In this document: one piece after another, positions 5,215-45,113 of the stretch | How positions within the stretch are numbered: the first letter of the stretch is position 1 | How the letters are laid out: each line of letters begins with the position of its first letter | Assembly: GCA_016617785.1 (NCBI GenBank) | Contig: JADILM010000004.1 | Location: forward strand, 1,798,001-1,862,000 | Origin: Sporobolomyces roseus | Lineage: Eukaryota; Basidiomycota; Microbotryomycetes; Sporidiobolales; Sporidiobolaceae | Length of the DNA: 64,000 nt | Direction: 5' to 3' | Notes under the pieces: generated by a model | What the model saw: the letters and a program-made list of their open reading frames with translations, nothing else | Told to the model about the DNA's origin: nothing | The model's database searches: none | Program-made: the position numbers and the translations under genes

Positions 5215-5216
5215 TA
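5212..5216 (-). promoter_or_regulatory. TAATG stop-start overlap between LINE ORF1 and ORF2
   Basis: On the minus strand the ORF1 stop TAA (5216-5214) shares its last A with the ORF2 ATG (5214-5212). This arrangement is known for termination-reinitiation in some LINEs and mycoviruses. It would explain how ORF2 is translated from one bicistronic RNA. Confidence 0.7.
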
Positions 5217-7088: not shown

Positions 7089-7101
7089 GTTGCGAGAGAG
7101 G

Positions 7102-10037: not shown

Positions 10038-11347
10038 TCACGCGACTGGATCAGGGCGACACGGGGCCCACTCCGATTCGACGTTGCGTTCCTTCATTCC
10101 TTGAGCGAGAAGCGGATAAGCGTTCGAGTCGATCGTAGGTAGATAACCGAGATGAACGTGACGGAGGTGCGGGAGTTTCTGGAGATTGGCGAGGACTGCG
10201 AGTTCGGGGAAGATGCGAGTTGGGTGGTCGGATTCAGAATCTGAGGTGGGATTCGAGGAAAGGGGAGTCGAGATCCAGAGAGAGCTTGTGAAATCAATCG
10301 TATTAAGATGAGGGGAAGCCGTGCAGAGAGCATTGAGAAAAGGTAACGAAGGGCCCTGGAATCGTTTGAGCGTGAGATTGGTGAGGGATGACAAGGATTC
10401 GAATCCTGCGACGGGAATGAGAGAAGAAGAGGGTAGAAAAACCCTCTGTTGGTGTGACCTGAGGTAAGGTGGATCGTCGAGTTTGTTATTCCGGCAGACA
10501 ATCTCGAGGCTCTTGAAGCTCGGAGAGAGCGAGCTCAAAAGATCGGTGAATCGGTCTGCACCAATCGTAGAGACGTCGAGACGGATTGTACGGAGTGTCG
10601 AGCGGTCTGCTGGGAGTAGTCGCCTAACATGATTGAAGTGCATGTAGGCTGCTATCCTGAGAGACTGAAGAAGGATAGGGACGCTGCTATTCAGCTGAGA
10701 AGTGAAATCGATATCGATGTTGTCGATGGCTAGGTGTTTAATCTGTCTCAATTGAGAACGTCGGAGGGCCTCCTCACCGATATGATCATCGAAGCGCCAG
10801 ATACCTCCGCCGACGAGACGAGAGTCGGTACGGAATGTTCGAGTGCTTCGAGGATTGCGTTTAGCGCCTGCATCGTGTCGCAGCTGAGATCGATGGCGAA
10901 GAGACGAGGACAGGCTGAAATGAGGGAGAGGTAGAGCGAGAACAATTTCGTGTAACCACGGAGGTCGAAGGAAAGAGGGAAGTTGGGCCCAGTGTCGTGT
11001 TCGATTCCGCCAACGAATTCGACGATCCCATGGAGCGAACGGACGAGCCGAGCGAGATGAGTGATTAGAGATGCATGAAGAGCGATCGCATGAGTCCAGC
11101 TGGCCTCCATCGACGGAATCGGACGATAGTAGAGATCCGAGCGAGCGATAGGGAGGAATTGTTTCGAGGCGAGGCAGAGTGAGGCGAAAGTAGCCTGAGA
11201 CTCGACTATACGCATCGATCGTGTCAGTATAACTTGTGTCTAGGGAGACAGATGTGAGACAGACTGACGAGTAGGTCTAGCAGTTTTGTCGTGAACTTGC
11301 GAGAAGATCAATTCGAGGATTTCATCGGGGAGACAGACGGCTGACAT
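10038..11347 (-). pseudogene. F-box-like gene C, left-arm copy, frameshifted
   Basis: The start at 11347 gives MSAVCLPDEILELIFSQVHDKTARPT, an F-box-like start. An intron follows with donor GTCAGT, branch CTGAC and acceptor GTATAG. Exon 2 reads LESQATFASLCLASKQFLPIA in line with the right-arm copy. At about 10815-10825 a net loss of 10 nt relative to the right arm shifts the frame, and it stops at 10748. The correct frame resumes and runs to 10038, where the C-terminal region (HLGYLPTIDSNAYPLLAQGM) is intact. The right-arm copy is broken elsewhere, so each copy preserves the part lost in the other. Confidence 0.7.
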
Positions 11348-11751
11348 TCCTGAATCCGAGCAGAGTGAGAAGACATCAGTTCATCGTCGCACATAGACGC
11401 CAGTAAGGTTGTAGACGAGCGAGCAATCGTAGGCGAACTCAGGAGACAAGGGAAGATGGGAAACAACTCCTCGCCAATCGCTAGAACTAGATCGCTACCA
11501 CATCCTCTAGAATCCTCTGGACCTGTAGCTCTGTCCCTTCGGGCCTGCAGATCTTCACGATATTGCCATCTCGTCGTCCATCCCACCTCTTGAAACTTTG
11601 AGAATTGTAGTGCGCTCACCTATGAGGGTTCTACTTGTGCTTGAGAGTCGAAATGACCAAAGCGAGACGAGCAGTGAAACGTTGAGGAGCAAGCAATTCC
11701 CCTGCAACTTCTTGAACCCTTCCAATCACCCAACTTTCTCACAACATCACC
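11348..11751. other. Arm boundary and divergent promoter region
   Basis: Homology between the arms ends near the start codon of gene C. The remainder is unique DNA that must contain the promoters of gene C (minus) and the dioxygenase gene (plus). I see no clear core promoter motif. Confidence 0.4.
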
Positions 11752-13505
11752 ATGGGTAAAGCGGGACAAGCCAGGAAGAAGAGAAAACAAGCAGAGCTCA
11801 CCCGAACCGAGTCCAATCTCGAACTAGAAGACTCCGACCCCTCTGAACCGACTTCGAAAGATTTCTTGTTAGGTCTCATCTCTCCTCAAGAACTCGCCAC
11901 CGCTACTAGGGTATTACAGACCTTGTCGAAACATCCGAATGAACTCATCAAGGATCAGAAACAACATTTGAAACAGATCAAGACGGCAGTGTGGGATTTC
12001 CAGAGACAGGCAGCAGCGGTCTCGGGAACTGGTTAGTCTAGCTCTCTTGCTGTGTAGAGTAGACTCGAACTTTCATGCTGACGACGAACCAACCCGGGCA
12101 ACACTAGGCTCCTCGCTGACTTCTCGAATTTCCGAAGCTCTCTCTTCAGGACGACATACCGATGCCCTTGTCCTCCTCTCTGAACTCCGCATCCGCAAGC
12201 TACCTCTGCCACTCGGCAGTCTTAACAGATGGGTCAGAGAATGCGACGCAGCATCTCGTTCAAACGGTAGTTTCGGAGACGCAGAAGTTCTGAGAGTACT
12301 CGATTCTATCTTGAGGTGCACCTACGATCAAGAAGAGATGCTGAGACCACCTGTCGTCAAGAGGGATGAATGGGTACAACGAGGATTGAGTGGGCTGGAT
12401 GTGTGGAAAGAGATTCAGGAGGGGAGTCTACCGAAACCTGAGGAGAAGGAAGTTTTGGCGAAACGGTTCCGATTGCGTGAGCACCTCTTTCTCGACAGTC
12501 CTCAGCCCATCCTGACTAACAAATTCTCCACATTATCAGTGCACACCACTCCTGGACCTGAACGTCTACCTCCGAATCTCCACCCTGCTCTACTATTTCA
12601 TTCCCATCCCGGTTCAATCCCTCTCTCCGACTCACCCTCAATCCCTTCAACCGCTATCCCTGTCCCTGGAGTAGATGGAGCCATGATGCTCACGGACGTC
12701 CTCTCCCCTATCGAATGTCGGGAAATCCTCGGTTCCGCCGAATCTGTCGGGTTCCACCCAGATCAACCAGTGGCCGATAGATCAGCTTCCGTTCTCGCTC
12801 ACAACCTGTACTGGTTGGCCGATGAAACGTTCCTGGAGAGATTCGTCAAGAGATTCCTACATCTCGTACCGCAGGAGATTCATGGTGGGAAAGTGCGAGG
12901 AATCAATCCGAGGTTCAGAGGTGAGCCACCTAGCTCTTTAGTTACTTGTTCTCAAACATACTGAAATCCTCCTTGGTGTCACAGTGTACCGCTACGTGCC
13001 TGGAGCTATCTATCGACCTCACATCGACGGTGCTTGGCCAAGAAGCGGAATCGACCCTACAACCGTGAGTCGATTCCAGTTTTCAGCTGCTGGTTCTCGA
13101 CTGATCTCGTGCAATTCGTCTCACAGGGGGAGTATCTGTACGATTCATCACCGAAAGATGCACCCGAATGGTCTCGTCTAACCCTTCTCGTTCGTTTCCT
13201 CGCTTCCTGCCTTTCTCTCATTCCGCTTACTCCTCCCCTCTCTGCAGATCTATCTCAACGATGGTTTTGAAGGAGGTTGCACAACGTTCTTCGTCCCTTC
13301 TCCAGTGGTCGGTACAATGGATGCGTTCCCAGTCAAACCTATCGCCGGCTGCGCCCTTGCATTCCCTCATGGTTCCTCGATCGGTTCTTTATTACACGAA
13401 GGATCTCCGGTTGGCTTGGGTGGAGCGAAATACGTCATTAGGACGGAGATCTTGTATGAATCGAAAGGTGTCGTTGCCGAGGGATTCGAGACTTCTACTT
13501 TGTGA
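11752..13505 (+). CDS. 2-oxoglutarate/Fe(II)-dependent dioxygenase, prolyl-4-hydroxylase-like (about 476 aa)
   Basis: The predicted activity is oxidative hydroxylation of a protein or small substrate using 2-oxoglutarate, O2 and Fe(II). Six exons join in frame: 11752-12031, 12108-12476, 12540-12920, 12985-13064, 13127-13189 and 13248-13505. The C-terminal third has the double-stranded beta-helix signature: YRPHIDGAW supplies the first His and the Asp (HxD), TLLIYLNDGFEGGCTTFF is the core strand, LLHEGSPV supplies the distal His, and YVIRTEILY the 2OG-binding Arg. The N-terminus is basic (MGKAGQARKKRKQ), which may be a nuclear or nucleolar signal, followed by a helical region unlike classical P4H subunits. 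There is no signal peptide, so a cytosolic or nuclear role is more likely than collagen-type hydroxylation. The substrate is unknown. Confidence 0.8.
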
Positions 13506-13719
13506 GGAGACGGCGTGTACGGGACTGAGGGTATATATTGTAGCAATCATGTAGCTGTATCGGTTAGGCTGTTGCAAGTATCTCGTTCACCAAGCTATAT
13601 CTCGAGACAGCGCACAACAATCGTGAACCTCTCGATTCGAGCATATTCGGACGTCTCGACGAGGGAAACCTGCTTGATATTCGACAATAAACACGATATG
13701 CAGTCACTCTAGAAGGCCT

Positions 13720-15903
13720 TTAGCACATACTCCTCCAAACCTCCAACCCCTTCCCAATCACCTTCAAGCTCTCCATCATCCCAACCAATTCATCTCTCTC
13801 CCTCATCGCACTCCTCTCGATCCCCTCACAGCTACTCCGCACCCTCTCATATCCTATCTTCGCTTCCATCAATCCCAGCTCCAGCCCACTTGTCGCTCTT
13901 TGCGGTTTGACGAGTTCCGCCAAGTTCCTCTCAAACTCCTTTCTTTCCCTCTCCCATACCTCCCTTTCCTTTCTCATCCGACTCTCCAAACCCTCTCTCA
14001 TTTCCCTCAAATCCTTCTCTTTCTCTTCTTCAACAACTCTCAGCTTCTCCTCCAATTCCTCTTTCTCTCTCCTCAATTCCTCCTGTCCCATCCTTTCTAA
14101 TACCAATACCTCCCTTCTCTCCTCCTCCTCCTCCTCTACTTCTTCTTCCACATCCGGTTCGAAGCTCACGTCTGCCCTCTCTAAATCTCTCCTCGGACTC
14201 CTCCCTTTCGACATATTCAAACTGACCACTCTCCCCCTCCACGGACTACTAACCCCTCCAATCTCTTCCAACATAACCCTCGAGATTTCTTCATCCATCA
14301 ATTCGAAACTCCCTCCTCCTCCTCCCGCGATTCCCGAGATCCCAGTGGGAGTCGAAGGGAGAGGGGAGGAGAATAATCCCGAAGCTAGTAATTCTTCGAG
14401 CGTTGTCGAACCACGAGGTTTCCGTTTAGTCGCAGTGGTGGAGGAGCGGAGTAAAGAGATTTGACGCGGAGTTGGATCGAGGTGAACTTGGGCGAGAGAA
14501 GTCGAGGTTGAAGTGGAGAGGTGTTTCGAAGCTGAAGGGGTCGAGAACGGATTCGTTCCTGATCCTGGGGGAGACGTGGGAGAACTGAGAGAGGTGGGGT
14601 CGAGGGAAGGACGAGCCGAACGATTCGATCCTACAGTCTCCCACGATTCTCGTCGTTCTCGACCATCTCTTCTTTCGTCCGGCATATCTTCCATCTTTCT
14701 ACTTCTTGGTGTCCCTCCACTAGCTCCAGTGTTACTCCCTCGCCTTGTTTGAGAGACCGATACTCGTCTAGCTACGGGTGGTGGTCCTAAGCCTTTCAAT
14801 CTTTCCCCTCCTTCGTTCGCTCCTACCCGTTTCGCACCAGTTTGACGATTGGAGGATTGTGGGATAGAAGAGAGCTTAGTGATGGATGAAGTAGAAAATG
14901 GGAGTCTACTGAGAGGAGGACGAGGAGGACGAATCGATGCATTCGAAGAAGAAGACGGAGGTAGACGAGTTGTAGTGGTCGATCGTTTGAGTGGAGAATC
15001 TGTTGGTTGGAGGGACGTGCGGGATGAAGTGGATCGAGAGAGAGTGGAGGAAGTCATGGAGCGATTTAGAAGCGAAGAGGAGGAAGGTTTGCGAGATGTT
15101 GAGGTTTGGACAGAGGGGGATGGAGGACCTCTTCTAGTACTTCGAGGTGAGGCAGTGGCAGATTCACGGTCTATACGTCGACTCGGGGTACCTGAGACGG
15201 TCCGTCTCGAGGTAGCAGGGCCTCCAGCAGTCGAAATTGGAAGCGAACGAGAAGTATTGAACGAATCCGCAACGTTTGATTCACTTTGAGAGGGCGGCCT
15301 CGATCTGGTTGATTCGGCCTTTCCTTCTCTCTCATCGAGTGTTGATCTTGAAACGGATTGCGAGAGCTGGGAACGACGCAAGGGAGTTGTCGCGGGTCTG
15401 AGGGCAGCTCGGGAAGAAGACGGGGGTCGGATCGAGCTGGATTGACTTCGAGGGAGAGTAGATGGATCTATGCGTTCCTTCCCGTACTCCAGTAAGCTGG
15501 GGAGCGACTGAAAACAGCGAGAGAAGAACGCACCTCCTGTTGATTTCGAACTATCCCTCAACCCTCTCTGTTCACCCGTGGTCTCTTGTACACCTTGCAA
15601 GACTCTTCTTGGACCCCTCACACTCCCTATACTCCCAATCTCATTCGTTCTGCTGGAGGTCGATGAAGAACCGAGTTGTTTGGCACTAACTTTTCTAGCT
15701 CCTCCCACTCCTCCAGACCGTGCAGTAGGTAGTTTGAACTCTTCCTTATGCTGTGATGCGCTTGGAGTAGCGTTCGAGGTGAGTTGACGGTGAGAGGACG
15801 AGATGTTGATTGATGAAGATGAAGATGGAAGGGAGCGATGGGAAGCTCTTGGTAGCGTTGAAGTAGATGTGGATGGTTGTCGTATATGTGTCGAGGTCGA
15901 CAT
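13720..15903 (-). CDS. Ser/Thr/Arg-rich protein with C-terminal coiled coil (about 727 aa)
   Basis: I do not recognise this as a named gene. The frame is open from 15993, but the first ATG is at 15903 (MSTSTHIRQPSTSTSTL), which I take as the start. Residues 1-480 are basic, low-complexity Ser/Thr/Pro/Arg sequence, probably disordered and phosphorylated. They contain KLSSIPQS, a match to the SxIP motif that binds EB1-type microtubule plus-end proteins. A stretch near 520-590 is more ordered. Residues about 600-720 are charged heptad-like sequence (EELRREKEELEEKLRVVEEE), a likely coiled coil. The layout fits a cytoskeletal or spindle adaptor, but this is inference. A short intron near the middle cannot be excluded. 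The gene lies tail-to-tail with the dioxygenase gene, about 215 bp apart. Confidence 0.65.
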   Translation of the reverse strand: MSTSTHIRQPSTSTSTLPRASHRSLPSSSSSINISSSHRQLTSNATPSASQHKEEFKLPTARSGGVGGARKVSAKQLGSSSTSSRTNEIGSIGSVRGPRRVLQGVQETTGEQRGLRDSSKSTGGAFFSRCFQSLPSLLEYGKERIDPSTLPRSQSSSIRPPSSSRAALRPATTPLRRSQLSQSVSRSTLDEREGKAESTRSRPPSQSESNVADSFNTSRSLPISTAGGPATSRRTVSGTPSRRIDRESATASPRSTRRGPPSPSVQTSTSRKPSSSSLLNRSMTSSTLSRSTSSRTSLQPTDSPLKRSTTTTRLPPSSSSNASIRPPRPPLSRLPFSTSSITKLSSIPQSSNRQTGAKRVGANEGGERLKGLGPPPVARRVSVSQTRRGSNTGASGGTPRSRKMEDMPDERRDGRERRESWETVGSNRSARPSLDPTSLSSPTSPPGSGTNPFSTPSASKHLSTSTSTSLAQVHLDPTPRQISLLRSSTTATKRKPRGSTTLEELLASGLFSSPLPSTPTGISGIAGGGGGSFELMDEEISRVMLEEIGGVSSPWRGRVVSLNMSKGRSPRRDLERADVSFEPDVEEEVEEEEEERREVLVLERMGQEELRREKEELEEKLRVVEEEKEKDLREMREGLESRMRKEREVWERERKEFERNLAELVKPQRATSGLELGLMEAKIGYERVRSSCEGIERSAMRERDELVGMMESLKVIGKGLEVWRSMC

Positions 15904-16758
15904 CGCTATCGTGCGAGATGGAACGAAGTGAGGGAGGAGAGAAAGCGAGAAGCGACTTTCGCAGACTAGCGATTTTGTGGTCTGCTTGCTCAAGAGACGA
16001 TCGCATCCACTCGAACTGAAAAAGACACTCTCTGGACTTCATGAAGCTTTGCGGCCGGAACGAGAAGAACGGATATAATCGATAAATTTCGCAGGATCAT
16101 AAGCAATTCGCCGCTTCCCTCGTCCTGCCTTCCGACGAGAGACTCAAGATGAGCTCAGGAAGATTCTTCTGGCTTCTACGATCACTGGGAAACTAGCACA
16201 AGTCGATCCCATTCGTTGACCTGGCCCTGTTTACTTGTAGATATCCTGTTCTGCCTCTATCTCCTACTCCTAGACCTTCTGCTCCGCTTCCAACACCCTG
16301 TACCTCCTCTGTCGATATAATACCTAGCCTTGCGTCTTGTTTGAGGCCATCTTGGGATGCAACTAGATGTTGTAGCGACGCGAACGAAGGTTGAACGGAT
16401 GAAGGGTGAATCATTTCCGGCTTGACCGGGTCCCCGATCGCTCCGATGAATTGCGACTAGCTCATTGGGCGTATATAGCTAGTCTAAGCGCATCCAGAGG
16501 GTTGCCATGATTGCTGAAGGTCTTGACTCGGTTTTGAGTTGATTGAAGATCGAAAATGAGCGAATCTGGACGGAACGACGTAGAAGTTGTCCAGATTGAT
16601 AGAGGAAATGTTCTAGCCCTAGTCTACGAGTGCTGGAGTCTGAAGCAAGAGTCAGTGTGGAGCGTAGGAGATGAACCTCCCACTCTTGATCTTCCCACAA
16701 CTTTCTGCTTCCTCCACCTCACTTGCTCTGCCGTTCTCTCCTCAATCCACTCTCAAGA
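15904..16758. other. Divergent promoter region between coiled-coil gene and RPB4
   Basis: There is no convincing coding sequence on either strand. Short frames here lack splice-compatible context. It should hold the promoters and 5' UTRs of both flanking genes. Confidence 0.4.
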
Positions 16759-17465
16759 ATGTCACGTATCACCTCACGTATCAAGCCTGAAGACGAAGAT
16801 GCTTCCCAACTGAAATTCGGACCAGGTAAATCTCACCCTCTCTCTCTCCTCTCACTACCTCCTGCCGCTAGCTAACCCTAGAGAATTGATGCAGAATTCG
16901 AACAATCATTCGTACAGAAGAACACGTTGACCATTAGTGAGGTGAAAGTGATTTTGGATACTATAGATCAAGATAAACAACCTGATAACGCGTGAGTCTC
17001 TCCCGCCTCTCCAGCTCTGGACACAGAGCCCAGGCTGAATTTGGTAGGAGGCCGCACGCACAGTGTGTTTACGAAAACGAGAGATTATGTTGATATTTTC
17101 GCGAGGTTTCCAACTTCAGAAGTTTCAGATGCAGTTCGACAGTACGTTCCACTCGATCCCTCTACCCTAGTGTTCAGAACAGTACCTGACGGTGTGACAC
17201 TTTGCTGCGAGCGTACAGATCATTACCGGACGATCAATTAAAGTTTTACGAAATCGCACAATTGATCAACCTGTGTCCGGCAGATTCGGAAGAAGCGAAA
17301 GCGCTCATACCTTCGTATGTCGCTCACTCTCTCTCACCATATGCTCTCGCATAGGAAGAGCGCTGATGACGATGTGCTTGTGGAACGTACAGGATTAAAT
17401 TGGATGATGAGATTTTACAATCACATCTGACGGATCTGGCGATGGTTAGGAAGAATCAATCATAA
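16759..17465 (+). CDS. RPB4: RNA polymerase II subunit Rpb4 (136 aa)
   Basis: Rpb4 forms the stalk of RNA polymerase II with Rpb7 and acts in initiation, and in mRNA export and decay. Five short exons join in frame: 16759-16825, 16895-16991, 17064-17141, 17219-17314 and 17393-17465. The C-terminal signature is FYEIAQLINLCPADSEEAKA followed by LIPSIKLDDEILQ, the hallmark of the RPB4/RPC9 core. The N-terminus FEQSFVQKNTLTISEV also matches the family. The length is close to plant and animal Rpb4 and shorter than the yeast protein. Four introns in 400 coding bases is dense even here. The gene lies in the single-copy segment between the inverted arms, so recombination between the arms could flip it. 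Confidence 0.9.
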
Positions 17466-17723
17466 CGCACGAGATCAGCGGTTCGTTGTAGGAAGGAGAC
17501 GCAGTGAATCGAGGTTCTGATGGCGTTGTATCGATTTTAGAGGGTTTCGGGCTTAAGGTCATTTTCCGAAAAACATTGTTGTAACTACCAAGAAGAGCTT
17601 TTTTCGTTCTCACACTACAGCGCTCTTCTAGTCTCTTCACAAGTACCTCCTTTGGACTCGTCGTACTATGCAGAGCAACGAGATCGACCTAATGTAGCTC
17701 ATTGCGTAAGATCTCGTCTCATT

Positions 17724-18682
17724 CTATTCAAACTTCAATACTTTCCCCATCTTCCCACTCGTCGTCTTGCCCTCGTTCCTCCACCTCTCCTTCTCCTTCT
17801 TGCCCTCCTCGACCCTTCCAAACACTCTCCAATACAACCACCCCTCAATCATAGCAATCGCAATCGCACCTCCCATACTCAATCCCAATCTCTACAACAC
17901 TCACTGTTCAATCAACTTCCGTGCCTTTGAAAGAGAGAGGGGAGACGTACGACAGCTGGAGAATACCCGAATCCAACCCAATAAACACTAGTGAAAACCG
18001 CTCCCATCGAAACCAACACGTTGACAATCGCACTCAATTCCCTCTTGATCTCGCCCCATTCCTCAGCGACGGTTTTGGAGGATGACGAAGCGTGGATATC
18101 AGTTTGAGGGAGGAGAGAAATGTGCGAAGGGGTTTGAAGGGAGGTGAGGGAAGCGTAGGAGATGCGATCTTGGGAGAGCTGGATTGAGGAGAGAATGGCT
18201 AATAGCTCGGGGGACTGAGGAGGGAAGGGAGTCAGTAGGGAGGAGAAGGAGGGGAGGGGAAGGGCGTACTTTGGTGCGGGGTTTGAGAGGTGGAGCGTAG
18301 ATGTCCGTTAGTTTCAGAAGGGAAGATAGGCGGATTGGATCTGTTGGCATACTTGATCATAACACTCAGCTCATTGTTCGATCAAAGCAGTCCGAGAGGG
18401 AGTATGCGAACCTTTTCCACCCAAATTGTGCAATTTACCTCTCAATCCTTCCTCCTCCTTATTCTTGACCCAAGTCGATATCTTGACCAATACATTATGT
18501 TCAATCGTGTTTACTTGCTCGCCTTTCTCAGTGATCTGAGGCAGAGGTGACGAAGTTGATTCAATCGATTCTAGTGGTTGATCTAGATGGAACTGGACGA
18601 GTTGGAGGAGTTCTTGAGGTAGTAGAGGTAGAAGCGGTTGTAAGCGCGTCTCTAGAGCGGGCGTCAGAAGGAGGAGTACCAT
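17724..18682 (-). CDS. VMA12: V-ATPase assembly factor, Vma12/TMEM199-like (257 aa)
   Basis: Vma12 works in the ER to assemble the membrane sector of the vacuolar H+-ATPase. Four exons join in frame: 18682-18412, 18340-18270, 18214-17951 and 17891-17724. The protein starts MVLLLLTPALETRLQPLL. It has the family's central motif LSSLLKLTDIYAPPLKPRT and then two C-terminal membrane segments: IVNVLVSMGAVFTSVYWVGFG and LGLSMGGAIAIAMIEGWLYW, followed by a charged tail. A conserved-type EEWGEIKRELSAI lies just before the first segment. The length agrees with fungal Vma12. Identification is by motif layout, not by alignment. The gene is tail-to-tail with RPB4, with about 260 bp between stops. Confidence 0.72.
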
Positions 18683-18954
18683 TGCTGAGTGAGATGTAGA
18701 GGAGAAAGAGCAAGAAGAGAAAGGTTGGATCAGACCATTTCAACACAATACTCGCTTGGGCTACTCTGATAAAATCACTAGCTAGAGAAGATCATCAGGG
18801 TGAGTCTACAAGCGTCTTTTGGCTAGCGGGAGGTGAGATGGAGGAGGAATCGCGGGTGAGAGATGAACGGTGACGACGCGGTCGGAAAGCAGTGAGTAAC
18901 GCTGGAAGAGGGACGGGAGATGTACGAATTGACTAACAATGTCTGTGAACAGCG

Positions 18955-20277
18955 ATGTCGTCCATCTACTTCCCCGATGAAATCCTCGAATTAATCTTCT
19001 CGCAAATTCACGATAAAACTGCTAGACCTACTCGTCAGTCTGTCCTTCTTCCCACCTAGACACAAGCTATACTGACACAATCGATGCGTACAGTCGAGCC
19101 TCAAACTACCTTCGCCTCACTCTGCCTCGCCTCGAAACGATTCCTCCCTATCGCTTGCTCGAGTCTGTACCATCGCCCAATTCCGTCGAAGGAGGCCACT
19201 TGGACTCGCGCGATCGCTCTTCATGCATCTCTAGTCACGCCTCTCGCTCGATTCGTCCATTCGCTCGATGGGATCGTCGAATTCGTTGGCGGAATCGAAT
19301 ACGACACCGAACCCAACTTCCCTCTTCCCTTTAATCTCAGTGGCTATACGAAACGGTTCTCCCTCTACCATGCTCTCGTCTCCGCCTTTCCGCATCTCTT
19401 CGCCGTAGATCTCGGCTGCGACACGATGCAGGAGCTAAACGCAATTCTGGGAGCACTCGAGCGTTCCCTACCGACTCTCAAAATTATCAACCTCGTCGGC
19501 AAGGGTATCTGGCGCTTCGATGATCATATCGCTGAGGAGGCCCTCCAACGTTCTCAATTGCAACACATTAAACACCTAGTCATCGACAACATCGACATCG
19601 ATTTCACTTCTCATTTAAACGGCAGTGTTCCGATTCTTCTTCAGTCTCTCAAGATAGTAGCCTACCTGCACTTCAATCATGTACGGCGACTATTCCCAGA
19701 AGACCGCTCGACACTCCGTACAATCCGTCTCGACGTCTCTGCGATTGGTGCAGACCGATTCACCGATCTTTTGAGCTCGCTCTCTCCGAGCTTCAAGAGC
19801 CTCGAGATTGTCTGCCGGAATAACAAACTCGACGATCCACCTTACCTCAGGTCACACCAACAGAGGGTTTTTCTACCCTCTTCTTCTCTCATTCCCGTCG
19901 CAGGATTCGAATCCTTGTCATCCCTCACCAATCTCGCGCTCCAACAATTTCAAGGCCCTTCTTTACCCTTTCTCTTTTCTCTTTTCTCTCTGCACGACTT
20001 CCCCTCATCTAAACACGATCGATTTCACAAGCTCTCTTTGGATCTCGACTCCCAATTCTTCCAATCCTGCCTCAGACCCTGAATCCGACCACCCAACTCG
20101 CATCTTCCCGAACTCGCAGTCCTCGCCAATCTTCACAAACTCCCGCACCTCCATCATGTTCATCTCGGCTATCTACCTACCATCGACTCGAACGCTTATC
20201 CGCTTCTCGCTCAAGGAATGAAGGAACGCGACGTCGTATTGGAGTGGGTTCCGTGTCGCCCTGATCCAGTCGAGTGA
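18955..20277 (+). pseudogene. F-box-like gene C, right-arm copy, frameshifted near the 3' end
   Basis: The start at 18955 gives MSSIYFPDEILELIFSQIHD. An intron at 19034-19093 (donor GTCAGT, branch CTGAC, acceptor TACAG) matches the left copy. Exon 2 stays open through LKIINLVGKGIWRFDDHIAE, the segment lost on the left. The frame breaks at about 19965-19990, where a TTTTCTC-rich stretch is expanded relative to the left copy. A second break at about 20087 removes one C from a CCCC run. After that the original C-terminal frame resumes, ending at the TGA at 20277. Read as is, the protein would end at 20082 with an unrelated tail. Slippage in pyrimidine runs is the likely cause. Confidence 0.7.
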
Positions 20278-20919
20278 AGGGCTGTGAGGTATCTCCGCGC
20301 GTCAGGGAAAGCATGAAGGGAGAGAGGAAACCGAGGACACCGAGGACGAAACGAGATTCAGTGAGAAGACTTCTATAATCGAAACGCTTGAAAAGAATTT
20401 GTTGAATGATGTAAACTTCTCTCTTTCAAGGTTGAAAGTGAGAGAGAGACGAAAAGCGCAAACTCGAGATCACTATAAAGATTTTGACAACAAAGGAGCG
20501 AACGACGAAGGGTGGTTCTTCACTCTTCCTTCGACTATCTCGGATTCGCCTCATACTTCGTCAAAAGGTCATTAGTATACTTCTGTAGCGTAGCCGTGAG
20601 TTCCTCTAGCTCAGAGAGCCTCATGAAGGGAGACAAGGAGGGAGGGAGCTGAAGGGTTGAGTGAAGGAATTGAAGTCAACGAGGATGCATCAGGGAGCGA
20701 TAATGAAGGCTGAAGATACCTTCAAAAGTGGCTATAAGCCCATCACATCGGCTCAATCGCTCGGGTGGGTGGAGAGGAGGAGGATTCCCTTTGTTCTCGA
20801 TGAGGTGAAGAGCTCGAGGAGTCCAGTATCGATGGAGGTACTGCATCGTACTCAGTTGTACGCGAAAGGCAGTGAAGGCTTTGTAAGCTGACCTCAGCTC
20901 CTTAATCCATTGTAGAAAT
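20278..20919. other. Spacer between genes C and B (right arm)
   Basis: This aligns with 9375-10037 of the left arm. No coding sequence or RNA gene was recognised. A short ORF at 20661-20891 is not preserved in the other copy. Confidence 0.4.
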
Positions 20920-22259
20920 ATGTCGTTCTCGTCTCTCCCGGAGGAACTCGTCGACTTGATCGCTGACTTCGTGGGCTCAGATCCAGAGTTCAGAGGTCAG
21001 TCTCTTAATCTTGAATACGATCGAAAAGCTGCTAACGAATCGGAGACTCTCCAGGCATCGCAAGGTGTTCGCTCCTTAGACTCTCCCTCGTCTCACGACA
21101 GACTCGCATTTCCGCTCAGCGAGTCCTCTACCAAGAACCCTTCAATCGCAATCTCTACAGTGACTGGGAGCGAGCTTACGCCCTCCTTCGAACTCTCAGC
21201 GGAAACGAAAGGCTCGGACACTTTGTTCGCGACACTGCAGGAATCGATGAATGGCTGTATTTGCTCGCAACACCGGATCAATCCGAGGAAACGCAAGATA
21301 TCGTTGCTCAAACACAGTCGTGGTATCAAGCATGCTTGAAGTGTTGTCCCAATCTGAGAAAGGTCGACCTCCTCCTCTCCTCGAGCTCTCGCGACCTATC
21401 GACGATCTTTCAAGCACTCTACCTCCGTCTCAACTCTGAACCTGGAGCAGTCTCGCCCCTCGCGACCCTCCGTGAACTTACCTTCCCTTACGACCTCGAC
21501 GAAGATTCAACTATCCCGCTAGAATTCGACTACACCCATGTCTTCAACCTTCTCTCATTATCTTCGATCCGCTCTCTCGACGAAGTATACTTTGGAGACG
21601 TCGCCTGGCTTCGTGGAGGACCTCGATCGACCTCACCGTGTTTCCCTTTCCCCGTCAAAGCTCTTTCAATCCATTCTCGTTCTAATCGACTCGCCGATTC
21701 TGCTCACCTCTTCCCCAAGGATCCTTCTACCCTCCGACATCTGGTCTTCGATGGACCTATCAATCCAAAGGGCATGGATCTACTATCACTTTCGTCTCTC
21801 GTCGGTCCACACCTAGAATCACTCTCCTTGAGTTTTCCCCCTTCTTCACCCAAACCGCGTCTCACAACCTACGCTCAACCTTCCTCGTTACCTCGTATGC
21901 CCTTGGATGCCTTCAGTACATTCTCTCACCTTATCACCCTCAACCTGCATCACGCTCACGGCCCCTCCTTGCGACTCCTCGAAACGCTCGCCCGGAAATC
22001 ACCGCTCCTCCGTGATCTCTCCTTCATGTCATCTCGCTGGATCGCGGATACTAATCCACTATCGAATCAGCAAGTTGAAATCTTCCCCGAGGTGCAGATC
22101 CTAGCAACTTTAGGACAATTCCGATTCCTGAGAAGCATTTACCTCGGCACTCTTCCTACCCTCGATCCCGCAAGGTACACAGAATTTGTTGATACAGTCA
22201 GAGAATCGGGAATCAAGGTCGAATATGGGGTGTGCGATGAGGATGAAGAGGAAGATTAG
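20920..22259 (+). CDS. F-box-like protein B, right-arm copy (426 aa)
   Basis: Exon 1 is 20920-20995 (MSFSSLPEELVDLIADFVGS). The intron has donor GTCAGT, branch CTAAC and acceptor CTCCAG. Exon 2 is 21055-22259 and reads CSLLRLSLVSRQTRISAQRV and onward, collinear with the left copy to the acidic CDEDEEED end. Exon 1 length (76 nt) and phase equal those of the left copy, and the frame is unbroken. The two proteins differ by scattered substitutions. Frame and splice sites have both been kept despite roughly 10% divergence, which suggests that B is the copy pair under selection. Its role as an SCF adaptor is inferred from the N-terminal motif only. Confidence 0.7.
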
Positions 22260-23431
22260 AGGAGAAGCTGGCTCTTTAAGGAGAATAGTAGGCTCGATGA
22301 CGTGACGCACTTAGAGAGTGTGCAGTGGATCTGACGGACGTGGTTGAGCACTCGGTACGTTCTGTCTTTCCGATGTCAGAGGAGCAGCGAGCGAGTGAGG
22401 ATAAGCAAGATCGAGATTCGCTGACATCTGGTCTTTCCCGTGACTTGTTCTCAGTCGTCGCATACTTTGATCGCCATCTAAAAGTCGACGAAATCTGTCG
22501 GGGAGGGGACGGAAACTGGTAAGAGTCGGAGGGAAATCTTGCAGGAGTTAGAGGGGAAAAAGAGGATGGTTTTCAGCTAGGGATGAGTAGTGGCTGAAGG
22601 GAATGGATCAGAATGAGAGGTAGATAATGTACAAAGAGTGAAGACTCATTTCCCCTCTGTCATCTGTGCTATGCGACGAGCTTTTGCACGTTGTCGTAAC
22701 GAACGAGAGTCAATTCGATAGTTCCGGTTCGCTCTCGTTTGATGAGGCTCTCCATCATTTTACTTGACCGGTTTTGGCTCTCTTATTCTCATGGACTAGA
22801 CCGGGAAGTGTTGGTCGCATCGGGCTCTCGAGGATCGTGTAGGCTAATCGAAAAGCATTGCTTCGTCTGGACCTCTCGCTGTTTGACTGTTTCCTCCATT
22901 CCTGCCATGCTATAAGCCGTCGTTGTTCTCACCATCATGGTAGTGATGGCAGAGTTTCAATACTGTCGAAGAATCGAGGTTGACTTCTTCCGAAATTCAA
23001 GGCGACGAAACTTCTCTCAGTTTCACTTCTCCCTCGACAACTTCGGATTCGCTCGGCAACTACAGGAGGACTCTATCAGCTAACTGTTAACCTACCGAGG
23101 TGAGTCTCTGCTTCTCTTCGGGTCAACGGAGGTAGAAAGAGGAAGAGGGAGATGAAACTTTTGGGGAAATGCATCAACATCAGCGAGGAAAGCAAAGGGG
23201 ACCTAGAAAATGGCTGTAGGTATAGGAGGGAGTGTATAGAAACCTCCCAAGCTGCCTCAAGGATCAGCTAGCTGTAGAAGAGGAGATTTCGGTCCTCCTC
23301 TCTCCAAGGTTGAGATACGCTTTGTTAGGCGACTAGAGATGCTGGTGGTCTCGCTGCTATTCTCAAACAGTATAAAGCCCGCTCACTTCCGGAATGTGCT
23401 AACCTCCTTCGCTGTTGTTGACACAGAAATC
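22260..23431. other. B-A spacer of right arm containing the LINE empty site
   Basis: It contains GCATCAACATCAGCGAGG at 23171-23188, the uninterrupted target of the LINE seen in the left arm. From about 23320 onward it becomes practically identical to the left arm, whereas before that it is visibly diverged. No gene was recognised. Confidence 0.6.
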
Positions 23432-24785
23432 ATGTCTTTCTCGCAACTTCCCGAGGAACTCGTCGACAACATCGCCGATTACCTCGAAAATAGTGCGAGA
23501 CGCTCCGTATAAATTGTCAAAGAACGTGTACTGATCAATCCTCGCTTCAAACAGATGGATCGGCCACCCTCCCGTCTTTGTGCCTCGTCTCTCGCCAAAC
23601 TCTACCCTCGGCTCGCAGAGCTCTCTATCGAGAGCCGTTCGACGTCCATACCAGGCTGCGAGACGATCTACGTTGGAGTCAGGCTCTCTGCTTGCTCGCA
23701 GTATTGCGGTCGAACGATCAGCGCCTGGGACGACTCGTTCGCAATACTTCGTGTATCGCTTCTTGGCTGGAGGACCTCAAAAAGCTTCTAGACGGCGAGG
23801 TATCCCCTAATAGAGCGGTTGAGCAAACTTCAAGATGGTACATCGACGTACTCTCCGCTTGTCCAAATCTTCATAGCGTCGATCTTTACTTCTCGAACGC
23901 AAACGAATTGCACAACCTCCTTCAGGCCGTCGACCTCCTTCCCCAATCCTCCCTTCGTCGGATCCAAAGGCCTCCTATCGATTCGTCCGTGATTCATCAA
24001 TTCGGAACATCACCTTTGGCGAAGGACGGTTTGACTGGAACTCATCCAATCTTCAGTCTGACATACTAGAAGCGCTGTCTGTGGCACCTCTACGATCTTT
24101 GGACAGCCTTGTATTAAATCGAGCAGGCTCGTCTATCCCGTTCGACGCGACCGTGCAAGCCTCGCAAATCCCTTTCCCCGTCAAACTCCTTGACATCACA
24201 ACCTATCGAGCCCAACTCTCAACGTACTTCCCTTTCTTCCCCTCAATCCGCTCCACGCTCAAGCGACTTCACATTAGCGTCGATTGCCGATATGACGCTG
24301 CCGACTTTTCGACACTCGTTCCGCTCATCGGTTCAAATCTGCGGCACCTGACTTTCTCCTCTATCGACCCGCGTCCTCCCATCTTCGCCCTATCAAACTA
24401 CTCCGTAGTAACAACTGGCCATCCCATCCCATCCGAAGCCTTCCGATCTTTCCCACGCCTTACCTCCCTCTCCCTCACTGGCTTTCATGGTCCTTCCCTT
24501 CGACTTCTTGACACGCTCACTCAGAACTCACCTCTACTCGTTTGCGTCAGCTTCATGAACTCGCGCTGGGTAGCGGACAACAACCGTCTTTCGGCCAATC
24601 CAGACGAGATCTTCCCAACCGCCCAAATACTCGCAGTCCTCCAGCGTTTCAGCCGTCTCAAAGGATTCTTCCCCGGCTTTCTCCCCGCTGAAGATCAGGC
24701 TAGATATTCAGGATTTGCTCAAGTATTGAATGCACGAGGGATTGCAACGGAATTCGAGTTATGCGAGAAAGAGGACGAAGATTAG
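23432..24785 (+). pseudogene. F-box-like gene A, right-arm copy, one-base frameshift
   Basis: Exon 1 is 23432-23492 (MSFSQLPEELVDNIADYLEN). The intron runs to 23554, then the frame DGSATLPSLCLVSRQT continues to about 23940. A CCCC run at 23951-23954 region (TTCCCCAAT) has one C fewer than the left copy, so the frame passes into a stop at 24069. In the shifted frame the protein resumes as SYRFVRDSSIRNITFGEGRF and runs to the stop at 24785. Nothing else looks damaged. The lesion is either recent or a homopolymer sequencing error. Confidence 0.65.
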
Positions 24786-40575: not shown

Positions 40576-41859
40576 ATGAACCCCGCAGCACTCGATCCAC
40601 CAATAGACTCAATAACGACTGCTCTAACAAAGCTCCTCGACTTACAAGAGGACTCACCAAACAATCCCAATTTTGAATCCCTCATCTCATCTCTTCAAGA
40701 CGCACACACAGCTCTGACAGACCTACGAGATGCTCAACAGCACGCTCAAACACCGGCACCATCAGTCGCAACCCCTGTACCTGCTACTCCTCCTCCTCTC
40801 ATCGCCAAATTCCATCCGAACCTAGTCATGCCGTTTTGCAAAGCGATCCGTAGCTTGGAGGTAGATAGACTGGACTTGATGCACGAGGTCATGAGTGATA
40901 TTGAAGAGGGAATGTCAAATTTGGATTCAATGGTTAGTTTTCACTCTCAATTTTCGCTTCATACTTTCGCTTTCAAACTGAATGAGGGATTGGTCGAGTA
41001 CCTTAGGGAATCATCGTCCGACCCAGCTACGTTGCTGGTCAGATCAATCTACTTGAGTGGGAATTCGGGATACCTGGTCGAGCTGGTACTGAATGGGAGG
41101 GTAGTTTGTTCAAAGGAACTTTTGTTTTTCCTCCAGGTAATAAAGCTTTCTTTCTCACTCAAACTCTTCATCTCCAATTCCTCATTCACTCATTCTCGAG
41201 CTCAGACTATCCGAACACCTCTCCGACCGTCAAGACTTCACCACCCCTCTTCCACCCGAACATTCACTCTTCAGGAATCGTTCCGACAAGTTATCGATTC
41301 CGTGATTCTTCCAGAGTGATGGAATGGCCTGAAGTAGGAGGGATCTCCGAGTTATGTAATACTGCAGGAGGCGATAGGATCAATGAATCTTTCAATGAGG
41401 TTTATAGAGAGACGAGTAGAAGTTTGAGGATTCCTCTCGTAAATACAAATTCACCTTCTGTTACTCGAAAGACGCTCGCTTATGGTAGAGCTTGCGATTT
41501 TACAGCTTCTTAATACCGTGAGATTAGTCATTCACTTCCCTCAGTTGACGGACGCTGTGAGAATCGAGGCAGCTACTATGGCAACGTAACTCTTTACTCT
41601 CCCTTTTTTCCTCGTTAGTGCTCTGATCCTGACTTTACTTGCTTCTTGTCGCGCAGAGATATACCCGAGGAATATGAGTAAGTCCTCGACATCTTCTCTT
41701 CCTCTTTTGAATTTGTTTCCGACGACTGAGGAATTCGTCTTCATTTCTTTTCGCAGAACTCGACAGAAAGAGGAAGCCGCCTCTCTCCTCCCTACACCAC
41801 AAGATCTTCTTGATCTAGAAGACGCTCAGAAACGAGTACGAGCTAGGCAAGTTGAGTAG
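40576..41859 (+). CDS. UBC9-like pseudo-E2 with N-terminal helical module, paralog 1
   Basis: This is the first of three tandem paralogs. Exon 1 (40576-40932) encodes an N-terminal module of about 119 residues (ITTALTKLLDLQEDSPNN, then LISSLQDAHTALTDL, LIAKFHPNLVMPF and VMSDIEEGMSNLDSM). The following exons (41007-41136, 41206-41438, 41506-41585, and shorter ones to 41859) encode an E2-like domain. It reads EWEFGIPGRAGTEWEGSLFK, GTFVFPPDYPNTSPTVKTSP, then PLFHPNIHSSGIVPTSYRF. In UBC9 the equivalent is PPLFHPNVYPSGTV followed by the catalytic Cys; here that position is Pro. The C-terminus is charged (RTRQKEEAASLLPTPQDLLD). It is probably a non-catalytic, UEV-like binding protein in SUMO or ubiquitin pathways. 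That is inference from fold similarity and the missing cysteine. Confidence 0.7.
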
Positions 41860-42236
41860 CTTGTTGAGAGTCGAGTAGCTCTTTAGAGAGTCGAGATGTT
41901 AAGGAGGAGGAGGGGGAAGGGAGTTTTCCGATCAGATTTATATACATGCAGTACTATTTACATACCCTTTCTATCTAACTCTCGTCATCGACTCGAAATC
42001 GAGAAGGAGAGCTGAAAGAGCAAGTGACGAAAAGTTGTGCGAAAAAGCAGGCTCTGGCAGTTTTTGCCCTTTTCCTTCCACTTTACTTCTCGAGCGAGCT
42101 TCGCCGCTCATGCACTTTCTCCAAGCTAGTATCTCTGCCAATGCTCAAGACGCTCTGATGAGACGCTCTGATGGATCTCAGTCGCTATGTCGCGAACAAT
42201 TTCCCTTGATCTCTTTCTTCTTCTCTCTCCATCAAC
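41860..42236. other. Spacer between pseudo-E2 paralogs 1 and 2
   Basis: An A/T-rich stretch at about 41935-41985 follows the first gene and may hold its 3' end signal. The last 60 bp before the next ATG are pyrimidine-rich. No gene was recognised. Confidence 0.35.
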
Positions 42237-43512
42237 ATGTCAGCTCCACCCTCGAAACGCCAACGCCTAGACAGCTCAAAATTCGATGCACCTATCTACT
42301 CAATCACAGAAGCTATGAACAGCCTCTGCACGGCTCAGGACAACTTTCCGAAATCTTCAGAATTGTTTGTCGACTTGATTCGACCACTCCAAGAGGCTCA
42401 TATAGCTCTCACTGAACTACAAGAGCAAGAGAATCGACTCGAGGCTTCGAAATCGCCGGATCCAGCACCAACGCCCTCGACACCTTTGATAGCGAAATTT
42501 CATCCGAACCTGACTAGACCGTTCGTCAACGCATTCAGATCACTCGACGCGAAGGATCTTAGTTTGGTGCAGAGAGTGATGAACGATATTGAGGCAGCGA
42601 TGCCGAAATTAGACGAATTGGTGAGTTTCGATTCGAACTCTCTTCGTTCGTTTCGCGTTTTGAGCTGATCTTCTCGCGTTATAGGGGATCATATTGCGAC
42701 CGTGCGTTGTTGACAATACTATGGATCTCTTTGTGTGGGAGTTTGGGCTACCTGGTCGGGCGGGAACGGAGTGGGAGGGATGTTTAGTGAAAGGAACTTT
42801 CGCTTTTCCTCAAGGTAAGCATACTTCTCGCCCTTCACGATCACGCTTACTTCTGACGCAACGTTGAATAGAGTATCCGGCAAAGTGCCCAAAGGTCAAA
42901 ACGGTGCCACCATTGTTTCATACAAACGTTTATCCTTCAGGAACGATTGATCATGGCTATCGGACATTCGCTCATTCATTAGCCTGGCCAGAGCAGAGTC
43001 AAGTGGCTGGACAGTATCACGTCGGTATTCGTCAGGCTGATGAGTGGTATCAAACGCTACCGATTCGTTCACGGATACCTATCGTGAGTTACCTTTTTCT
43101 CGTTCATTCCGACACCGTAGTCTGCGTTCTGAATCCGATCGTATTGTAGCTTCTGCACGCTTGTCGGTTGACAATGCATTTTCCGGAGATGGAAGATCCT
43201 AGTCAGCTCGACGCTTACAGTTTGATGAAGTAGGCTTGTTTCCCTTCGCTTTTTCGCTTCGTCGATACTCACTGATGCTCTTTCGTCACAACAGGAAGAC
43301 TCCTGATCTCTACGTGTATGTCACTACTCACCGATTGTTCAGCACTCGACAGGTCGATTCTCGGCTCTGCAGACTGACTTTCGTTCTCTCTTCCTCGCAG
43401 GATCCGACAAAAAGAAGAAGCTGCTGGCCGACTGCCGACGCCACAGGACATGCTCGATCTCGAGGACGCTCGTAAACGAGTGCTCGGGAAGGAAGGTCAT
43501 GTCGCTCCGTAG
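42237..43512 (+). CDS. UBC9-like pseudo-E2 with N-terminal helical module, paralog 2
   Basis: This is the best preserved member. Exons are 42237-42620, 42685-42814, 42873-43083, 43150-43229, 43296-43316 and 43401-43512, all joining in frame with canonical GT-AG sites. It opens MSAPPSKRQRLDSSK, a possible nuclear signal. The helical module contains LIRPLQEAHIALTELQEQEN, LIAKFHPNLTRPFVNAFRSL and VMNDIEAAMPKLDELG. The E2-like domain reads GIILRP, VWEFGLPGRAGTEWEGCLVK, GTFAFPQEYPAKCPKVKTVP and PLFHTNVYPSGTIDHGYRTF. The UBC9 catalytic Cys follows PSGTV; here Asp follows PSGTI, and HPN has become HTN. The tail RIRQKEEAAGRLPTPQDMLD is shared with paralog 1. Exon 2 is exactly 130 nt in both genes. 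The protein is likely a catalytically inert E2 homologue. Its partner is unknown. Confidence 0.72.
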
Positions 43513-43881
43513 GACTTCTGGGGTCGAGTCAGAGTTCAGGAGTTGTCGTCGTCGAGGTGGGAATGAAGAATGAACTTCTTGTTAGATCTCTGTCAGCTGG
43601 AGAGTGTTGTCTATGCTACGCTATACTTGTCGATCCCTTCCAGCTAAGAACTCGACGGGCAATGACGACAGCGAAAAGCGAGAGAACTTGCGAAAGTTTG
43701 GCGTTGGCGAAAGTGAGCGATACTTCGCTTCTTCCTCTTCCGCTTCTCGATTCAGCTTCACCGCTCAGATCAGATTTCTACAAAGTCCTCTGATCGATAC
43801 GAACAGCGCTCAAAACGAGATCGAGTCCTCGCTTGCACCAAACTTTCCTTCATCTTTCATCCGACCTACGACCTCTTCAAC
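43513..43881. other. Spacer between pseudo-E2 paralogs 2 and 3
   Basis: No gene was recognised. The region should contain the 3' end of paralog 2 and the promoter of paralog 3. Confidence 0.35.
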
Positions 43882-45113
43882 ATGCCTCCAGCCCTCAAAC
43901 GCGCTCGTACATCCTCAGCAACTCCCCCAACTACAGCATCACGAGCAGTTCAGCAAGCCATTGCGACATTGGCTTCTTCCTCAGCCAATTTAGACCCCGC
44001 TCTGTTCTCTCAACTTCTCGGATCGCTTCACGATGCACACGCTATGGCACTCGAACAGGAAGGTGTAGTACCGAAAGTTGAAGCTCCAGAAGAGGATCAA
44101 GGACCAAGAGCATCACCTCAAGTTTCACCTCAACCTCAACCTCAGCCTGAAGCTGAAGAACACTCTAGTAGCTTCTCGGGTCGATGGTGGACGCGTACAG
44201 TACGATTCAATGACAAGACTGATGAGGTAGTCTAGCGCGTTCTGGAAGATGTTGAGGCAGCGTTACCGAAGTTAGACGAATTGGTTCGTTTTCGTCAACC
44301 CTCGTCGGTTTCGCAGAACACTGATGTTCAGTTTGTCGTGTAGGGTATCTTGTTACGTCCTCATTGCGTTGAGGGAAAGATCGATTTGATGATTTGGGAG
44401 TTTGCGATCCCTGGGAAAGCGAAAACTGCATGGTCAGGAAGCTTGATCAAAGGAACCCTCGCATTCTCTCCAGGTACGCACAAATATCGACTGACAGTCA
44501 CAGTAAACTCATTCACTCGTACTCGTTCACGCGCTGATGCGGCATTATCGAGCAGACTACCCCAATACGTCACCTAAAGCAAAGACTGTTCCTCCTCTCT
44601 GCCATCCCAACGTCTATCCTTCGGGTACAGTCAGTGCTTGTTTCGAAATTGGCGATGAAGGTTTTGCATGGCCCGAAGCGTCTGTTCCGTGCGAAGGCAC
44701 GTTATCGAAAGGAGATCGTGTCGAGGCTTACCATCGAGCATTCTCAACCTTCCAACGCGAGCGACGAATAGCATTGGTACGCACACGTCATTCTCTCTAG
44801 TCTTGTTGAGGTTGACGCCATACTTCTCCCATAGTTCTTGTATGGCTGCCAACGAATCATTCATTTCCCCGAAATCGAGGCACCCGCACAGCTGGATGCT
44901 TACCAATTGGCCAAGAAAGATCCTGACGCGTACTCGTATGTTATCACTCTGATCTTGCTTCGGTATCTGGTCTGCAAAGCGCTGATGTGGTCGACATCGT
45001 GCAGTGCGAGAATTGAAGAAGAGGTCAAGAACCGCGCACCAACTCATCGAGACCTACTCGACCTTGCCGATGCACAGAAGAGAGTCGAATCTCGACGTGG
45101 GAGACAGAAGTAG
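43882..45113 (+). pseudogene. UBC9-like pseudo-E2 paralog 3, with an in-frame stop
   Basis: This third tandem copy opens MPPALKRARTSSATPPT, again a possible nuclear signal, and has SQLLGSLHDAHAMALEQEGV. After DKTDEVV a TAG (44233-44235) interrupts exon 1 where paralog 2 has a Gln codon before the VM/VL helix. The frame then continues perfectly: RVLEDVEAALPKLDELG, GILLRPHCVEGKIDLMIWEF, WSGSLIKGTLAFSP, DYPNTSPKAKTVPPLCHPNV and YPSGTVSACFEIGDEG, then the charged tail ending RVESRRGRQK. Ser stands where UBC9 has its catalytic Cys. All other splice sites are kept. Either this is a young pseudogene, or the stop is spliced out as a 36-nt intron (GTACGA...GTCTAG), or it is read through. Confidence 0.65.

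What the first reader, a model, noticed from the sequence alone, without database searches (positions are those of the whole stretch)
40576..45113. Tandem family of UBC9-like proteins lacking the catalytic cysteine
Three neighbouring genes share an N-terminal helical module and a domain that keeps UBC9 landmarks (EWEG/KGTFxFP, YPxxxPxxKTxPPLFHPNVYPSGT). UBC9 then has its catalytic Cys, but here the residues are Pro, Asp and Ser. Exon 2 is exactly 130 nt in paralogs 1 and 2 and intron positions agree, so these arose by tandem duplication of one gene. Independent replacement by three different residues suggests that catalysis is not merely absent but unconstrained, while the surface and fold are kept. 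They could compete with or scaffold the SUMO E2, as UEV proteins do for Ubc13. Two start with possible nuclear signals (SKRQR, LKRAR).
Basis: partly seen in the sequence, partly recalled or inferred. Interest (0 to 1): 0.82.

Follow-up and report, generated by a model that had tools for sequence, protein, structure and literature searches.

The report
Tandem UBC9 duplicates without catalytic cysteine
A red yeast carries a small cluster of genes copied long ago from its SUMO-attaching enzyme UBC9 that have lost the active-site cysteine and the docking helix for the upstream machinery but mostly keep the groove that recognises target proteins, so they are probably non-enzymatic regulators (one copy may be broken).

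Summary
Three tandem genes (40576-41859, 42237-43512, 43882-45113) encode an N-terminal helical module plus a UBC9-type E2 domain without the catalytic Cys. Copy 3 carries an in-frame TAG in exon 1: a pseudogene, or spliced differently. Descent from UBC9 is firm: all five introns match introns of the genome's own UBC9 in position and phase, with identical 80- and 21-nt exons, and UBC9s are the best solved-structure matches by sequence and fold. Five relatives, all Sporobolomyces, also lack Cys, and all eight form one clade, so one loss suffices, not three independent replacements. 'The surface is kept' is half wrong. Alpha-1 residues that dock SUMO E1 and backside SUMO are gone (R13, K14 and R17 replaced in 8 of 8). 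The Cys strand and following loop vary most. The HPN turn and acceptor-lysine groove stay largely intact in six of eight. Best reading: a Sporobolomyces pseudo-E2 family that cannot be loaded with SUMO and probably binds UBC9-type targets or partners; competition for E1 or SUMO is unlikely. Function is untested. Nine full-text searches (capped listings) showed no such family.

The parts
40576..41859 (+). g1: pseudo-UBC9 copy 1, six exons (40576-40932, 41007-41136, 41206-41438, 41506-41585, 41657-41677, 41757-41859), 307 aa; Pro at the Cys93 position; no KR-x-R; most eroded acceptor groove (4 of 9)
42237..43512 (+). g2: pseudo-UBC9 copy 2, six exons (42237-42620, 42685-42814, 42872-43083, 43150-43229, 43295-43315, 43401-43512), 312 aa; Asp at the Cys93 position; HTN instead of HPN; KRQR at residue 7
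43882..45113 (+). g3: pseudo-UBC9 copy 3, exons 43882-44283, 44344-44473, 44556-44776, 44835-44935, 45005-45113; intron 4 lost cleanly (101 = 80+21 nt); Ser at the Cys93 position in the gap-free register; in-frame stop in exon 1
44233..44235 (+). In-frame TAG inside the alpha-1 coding part of g3: disabling mutation, or skipped by an unproven intron (16 frame-keeping candidates listed)
42685..42814 (+). Exon 2 of g2, 130 nt (also 130 nt in g1, 41007-41136, and g3, 44344-44473); bounded by the phase-0 and phase-1 introns that UBC9 also has
43150..43229 (+). Exon 4 of g2, 80 nt (also 80 nt in g1 and in the genome's UBC9)
43295..43315 (+). 21-nt micro-exon 5 of g2 (also 21 nt in g1 and in the genome's UBC9)
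42934..42987 (+). Active-site stretch of g2, PSGTIDHGYRTFAHSLAW; holds no GT dinucleotide and no TGT/TGC in any of the three forward frames

Best explanation
The locus is a Sporobolomyces family of non-catalytic SUMO-E2 relatives (pseudo-UBC9s). A UBC9 gene was duplicated with its introns, gained an N-terminal helical module, an extended loop after the Cys strand and a C-terminal helix, lost Cys93 (once is enough), and multiplied in tandem (descent shown, about 0.95). Mechanism (inferred): the proteins cannot form a SUMO thioester at the usual site and have lost the alpha-1 residues that dock the SUMO E1 and backside SUMO, so they probably do not sit in the SUMO relay as competitors for E1 or SUMO. 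Six of eight keep most of the HPN turn and the acceptor-lysine (psi-K-x-E) groove, so their likeliest action is to bind UBC9-type targets or E3/substrate assemblies, probably in the nucleus (KR-x-R near the N-terminus in six of eight), and so shield or present selected lysines, with the variable loop and N-terminal module setting the specificity. The third copy here is probably disabled.
Confidence: 0.4

Rival explanations
1. UEV-like cofactor: the proteins heterodimerise with UBC9 or a ubiquitin E2 and position an acceptor for chain building, as Mms2/Uev1 does for Ubc13.
For: Cys-less E2 fold with an added N-terminal module and a well-kept first half of the E2 core; precedent of UEV1 with UBC2 (PMC7647121, passages).
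Against: The UEV1 proteins aligned in PMC7647121 lack the HPN motif, whereas H and N are kept in 8 of 8 here; UBC9 is the closest relative found; no partner known.
Confidence: 0.2
2. Decaying tandem duplicates without present function.
For: Copy 3 has an in-frame stop; g1 has lost much of the groove; g2 and its nearest S. roseus relative are only 55% identical in the E2 part while UBC9 is identical at 157 of 158 residues between the two species.
Against: g1 and g2 are open over six exons each; alpha-1 and tail patterns of their own (D[IV]EA..PKLDELG, PT..D[LM].DL.DA.KR, with exceptions in g1, P0001 and P0002) recur across species; pN well below pS between paralogs; long open relatives in four other named species, two of which look mis-modelled (P0002, P0005).
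Confidence: 0.2
3. Arms-race decoy: a fast-evolving UBC9 mimic that draws off effectors, viruses or mobile elements which target UBC9.
For: Known only from one genus so far, tandem, fast loop evolution: Cys strand and following loop 7 of 42 identical between g2 and P0001 against 46 of 68 just before it; a non-LTR retrotransposon and F-box/LRR-like clustered frames lie in the same window (by eye).
Against: No known attacker; fast evolution fits relaxed constraint equally well.
Confidence: 0.12
4. One reading: dominant-negative competitor for SUMO E1 or SUMO itself, like an engineered Cys-to-Ser SUMO E2.
For: Overexpressed SCE1 C94S acts as dominant negative in Arabidopsis (PMC10441941, passages); Lys18, Met/Ile36 and Leu38 positions are largely kept.
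Against: E1- and SUMO-docking residues R13, K14, R17 and H20 are replaced in 8 of 8, with net charge of alpha-1 from +2 to between -2 and -6.
Confidence: 0.06
5. Cryptic enzyme: g3 uses the Cys two residues downstream.
For: In one alignment that Cys falls on Cys93.
Against: P0003, P0004 and P0005 have Ala there; g3 has an in-frame stop; E1-docking residues are lost.
Confidence: 0.02

Closest known systems
UBC9 / UBE2I / SCE1 / Hus5 (SUMO-conjugating E2)
   Same: Fold over the whole 157-residue domain (models of relatives), HPN turn, PSG, much of the acceptor groove, five intron positions and two exon lengths
   Different: No Cys93; alpha-1 docking residues replaced; extended loop after the Cys strand; extra N-terminal module (about 100 residues) and C-terminal helix
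UEV family (Mms2, Uev1, Tsg101 UEV domain)
   Same: E2 fold without catalytic Cys; presumed non-catalytic
   Different: UEV1 proteins lack the HPN motif (PMC7647121) and UEVs are a separate E2 branch (recalled); here H and N are kept and descent is from UBC9
Engineered dominant-negative SUMO E2 (e.g. SCE1 C94S)
   Same: UBC9 domain with a dead active site
   Different: A point mutant should keep E1 and SUMO docking (inference); the natural family has lost those residues
Family-3 E2s with an acidic loop-7 insertion (Cdc34, UBE2G)
   Different: Family 3 has a 12-13 residue acidic/hydrophobic insert and an active Cys (PMC3399832); here the insert is longer, variable, and Cys is absent
FTS/AKTIP and RWD proteins (recalled)
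   Same: Non-catalytic E2-like folds used as binding modules
   Different: Different ancestry (recalled); not tested here

Membership tests
UBC9 (SUMO E2) | E2 (UBC) domain closest to UBC9 in sequence and fold | tested here: met
   g1-g3; g2; significant for the first half of the domain; models of relatives P0001, P0003; shared introns
UBC9 (SUMO E2) | Catalytic Cys93 | tested here: not met
   117 of 117 UBC9 rows have it, 0 of 8 members; the alternative alignment gives g3, alone, a Cys two residues on
UBC9 (SUMO E2) | Basic alpha-1 site for Uba2 and backside SUMO (R13, K14, R17, K18) | tested here: not met
   R13, K14 and R17 replaced in 8 of 8; K18 kept in 7 of 8
UBC9 (SUMO E2) | HPN motif | tested here: met
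   H and N in 8 of 8; P in 7 of 8, g2 has HTN
UBC9 (SUMO E2) | SUMO thioester formation and transfer | not testable with these tools
   Needs purified proteins
UEV | E2 fold without catalytic Cys | tested here: met
   (relatives)
UEV | HPN motif absent as well | tested here: not met
   H and N kept in 8 of 8
UEV | Membership of the Mms2/Tsg101 branch of the E2 superfamily | tested here: inconclusive
   No UEV row was put in the tree, and the tree does not resolve where the eight attach; shared introns point to UBC9
UEV | Heterodimer with an active E2 | not testable with these tools
   None

The most novel reading that the evidence does not exclude
A natural 'groove-only' UBC9: a pseudo-E2 family that dropped E1, SUMO and catalysis but kept the recogniser of SUMO-consensus lysines, and works as a reader or shield of SUMO sites, with a fast-evolving loop and N-terminal module tuning targets. 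It would be a second origin of non-catalytic E2 variants, this time from the SUMO pathway.
Probability: 0.22. Interest if true: 0.78.

Novelty: new variant of a known kind. Interest (0 to 1): 0.55.

Why it matters
Non-catalytic E2 variants are known for ubiquitin (UEVs). A natural family derived from the SUMO E2 did not appear in the listings of the nine paper searches made (open-licence PMC papers only, listings capped). If functional, it separates the parts of UBC9 by evolution: the acceptor groove survives without Cys and without the known E1 and SUMO docking residues. That makes testable whether binding of SUMO-site motifs alone has a cellular use, and offers a natural scaffold for blocking SUMOylation of chosen targets.

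Tried and rejected
Rejected: chance resemblance (Pfam, PDB, fold and intron evidence agree). Rejected: retrocopy of UBC9 (introns shared). Not found: further copies in this genome. Two six-frame searches with relatives (and 18 rows; 15 first-look candidates scored in each) gave their strong matches at this locus; the other rows are UBC9 or coincide with E2 matches, except C1:4112892 (E 0.03), judged unrelated by eye, and C10:598496 (E 0.5), not looked at. Considered: P0001 of S. roseus is nearer g2 at both ends but nearer g3 from the Cys strand to alpha-4; gene conversion, a mis-joined gene model or loop saturation, not resolved. Considered: psi-K-x-E/D sites before the E2-like domain of P0003, P0004, P0005 and P0002; g1-g3 have none, so not used as evidence. 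UEVs did not appear among the 50 fold matches listed in each; this says nothing against a shared fold.

The absence of family members outside Sporobolomyces is therefore provisional. No DNA of the relatives was obtained, so dN/dS between orthologs and the state of the g3 stop elsewhere were not tested. The N-terminal module gave no Pfam match over a cut-off within the whole proteins and was not folded or searched alone.
Full report
Setting. The window is part of a 22.4-Mb, 15-contig genome (G000:C4:1798001-1862000). Its UBC9 is identical in 157 of 158 residues to UBC9 of Sporobolomyces roseus, so the organism is a close relative of that red yeast; its name is not given.

Gene models. g1 has exons of 357,130,233,80,21,103 nt (307 aa). 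g2 has 384,130,212,80,21,112 nt (312 aa). g3 has 402,130,221,101,109 nt. All modelled introns are GT..AG. Phases are 0,1,0,2,2 in g1 and g2. In g3 the fourth intron is missing and the fused exon is exactly 80+21 nt. The DNA shows three copies of the exon-2 region at 1678- and 1659-nt spacing, 73% and 64% identical to the first. g3 has an in-frame TAG at 44233-44235, within what is coding sequence in the relatives P0003-P0005. Only an additional, unproven intron avoids it. (lengths 30-120 nt, donors 44120-44233, acceptors 44235-44282) lists 16 frame-keeping candidates; 7 have 57-85 nt, the range of the 21 introns modelled in g1-g3 and UBC9, and all of these remove part of alpha-1. For searches I used a 36-nt one (44200-44235). 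A stop-broken third copy is the reading I favour; RNA would decide.

What the domain is. Pfam UQ_con matches g1, g2 and g3 with 59.5, 53.5 and 57.3 bits (cut-off 27); in g1 only profile positions 14-81 match. Against solved structures 158 sequences matched g2 at E 0.01 or better, 60 were shown, and the best 28 are SUMO E2s, E down to 1e-20. The significant stretch is residues 128-198; the second half adds only about 4.5 bits. The genome has a canonical UBC9 on contig C1, with Cys93 and exons of 66,84,49,24,110,80,21,43 nt. Every intron of g1 and g2 lies at the place and phase of a UBC9 intron (UBC9 introns 1,3,5,6,7), and the 80- and 21-nt exons have the same lengths. The intron match in the second half of the domain makes up for the weak sequence score there. 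The genes therefore arose from a UBC9 gene copied with its introns, later losing UBC9 introns 2 and 4 (or copied before UBC9 gained them).

Relatives. Three protein searches found five relatives, all named Sporobolomyces: P0001 (S. roseus), P0003 and P0005 (S. pararoseus), P0004 (S. salmoneus) and P0002 (S. blumeae, 505 aa, apparently two adjacent copies in one gene model). P0005 carries 24 extra residues at intron 2, as if that intron had been annotated as coding. None of the five has Cys at the site. In the gap-free register g1, g2, g3, P0001, P0003, P0004, P0005, P0002 read P, D, S, G, L, P, G, G, while all 117 UBC9 rows (116 of the 120 listed hits plus the genome's own) have Cys. In another alignment, with a two-residue gap, the letters are S, G, C, V, A, A, A, G, and g3 would have a Cys. 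Strand/bridge letters in both models fall on the residue after HPN's Asn and on the two residues before the disputed one, which fits the gap-free register (the E2 pairing itself is recalled). In a 34-row tree the eight form one clade, 100/100, against 25 UBC9 rows and RAD6. Its stem is very long (3.27, against about 3.0 for RAD6), g1, g2 and P0002 are flagged as long rows, and the attachment point is unresolved, so the tree shows a single family and not by itself UBC9 descent. One loss of Cys is enough to explain it.

What is kept and what is lost. At 56 positions conserved in at least 95% of the 117 UBC9 rows: alpha-1 (10 positions) keeps 0-1; positions 92-111 (9) keep 1-2; the groove/HPN set (K74, H83, P84, N85, S89, T91, P128, A129, Q130) keeps 9 in g3, P0001 and P0003, 8 in P0004 and P0005, 7 in g2, 5 in P0002 and 4 in g1; the other 28 keep 14-21. 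In alpha-1, R13 becomes Glu or Asp in 8 of 8, K14 Ala or Glu in 8 of 8, R17 Pro, Val or Ser in 8 of 8, H20 Asp in 8 of 8; K18 is kept in 7 of 8. The Uba2-Ubc9 structure paper (PMC3012696, passages) assigns Arg13, Lys14, Arg17 and Lys18 to E1 docking and says that SUMO binding to the same helix is mutually exclusive; a 2025 review (PMC12687455, passages and sections 19 and 20) assigns Arg17 and Lys18 to backside SUMO. Fisher tests within seven proteins, P0002 left out: alpha-1 against the rest p 0.0005-0.008; 92-111 against the rest p 0.008-0.02, in g1 0.12; groove against the rest not significant (p 0.08-0.70); groove against everything else p 0.002-0.06, in g1 0.73. The groove list is recalled, not taken from a call.

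Rate. The half before the Cys site is well kept (g2/P0001 46 of 68), while the Cys strand and following loop are nearly free (7 of 42). Between the three paralogs pN is 0.35-0.44 and pS 0.73-0.80, i.e. saturated: past purifying selection is likely, present constraint is not measurable. P0001 resembles g2 at both ends and g3 more from the Cys strand to alpha-4, suggesting exchange between tandem copies or a joined model.

How it probably works. The proteins lack the thioester Cys and the known E1 and backside-SUMO contacts. Matches to the Rad60-SLD/SUMO family (11 rows, some probably ubiquitin), the SUMO-E1 UbL domain (1) and SP-RING (1), and UBC9 itself, exist in the genome, so the pathway appears present. 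The part that survives is the one that reads acceptor lysines. I therefore favour a non-catalytic target or partner binder that shields or presents SUMO sites, with KR-x-R near the N-terminus in g2, g3, P0001, P0003, P0004 and P0005. Shown: ancestry, fold (by prediction on relatives), loss of Cys and docking residues, retention of groove letters. Inferred: binding, nuclear site, effect on SUMOylation.

Literature. Nine full-text searches listed no paper on a natural Cys-less UBC9 paralog family; several listings were capped (for example 20 of 163, 20 of 209, 10 of 15), and only the passages and sections named here were read. The UEV1 proteins of PMC7647121 lack both Cys and HPN (passages); family-3 E2s carry a 12-13 residue loop-7 insert (PMC3399832, passages); SCE1 C94S is an engineered dominant negative (PMC10441941, passages).

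Numbers and limits were mended (PDB count, intron candidates for g3, tree limits, capped listings).

Noticed in passing
G000:C1:2041601-2058800 (L005-L008): Four E2 matches at about 5.68-kb spacing. The fetched 3.15-kb stretches L006-L008 are over 99.8% identical; L005 is 75% alike position by position without gaps. The residues look like UBC12, the NEDD8 E2 (by eye). Recent tandem amplification or assembly duplication.
   Followed up: partly
window 1372-7151, - strand: A 1301-aa frame with endonuclease/reverse-transcriptase look beside a 645-aa frame with a CCHC knuckle: a non-LTR retrotransposon by eye. Described only.
   Followed up: no
window 8022-24785, both strands: Several related F-box/LRR-like frames in a cluster, another possibly fast-changing family (by eye).
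   Followed up: no
   Followed up: partly
P0003, P0004 and P0005 residues 67-70; P0002 286-296: SUMO-consensus psi-K-x-E/D motifs before the E2-like domain of these relatives; about 10% chance of one in each shuffled N-terminus, and P0003-P0005 are close kin. Absent from g1-g3.
   Followed up: partly
P0001 (S. roseus): Mosaic likeness: g2-like at both ends, g3-like from the Cys strand to alpha-4; gene conversion or a joined gene model.
   Followed up: partly
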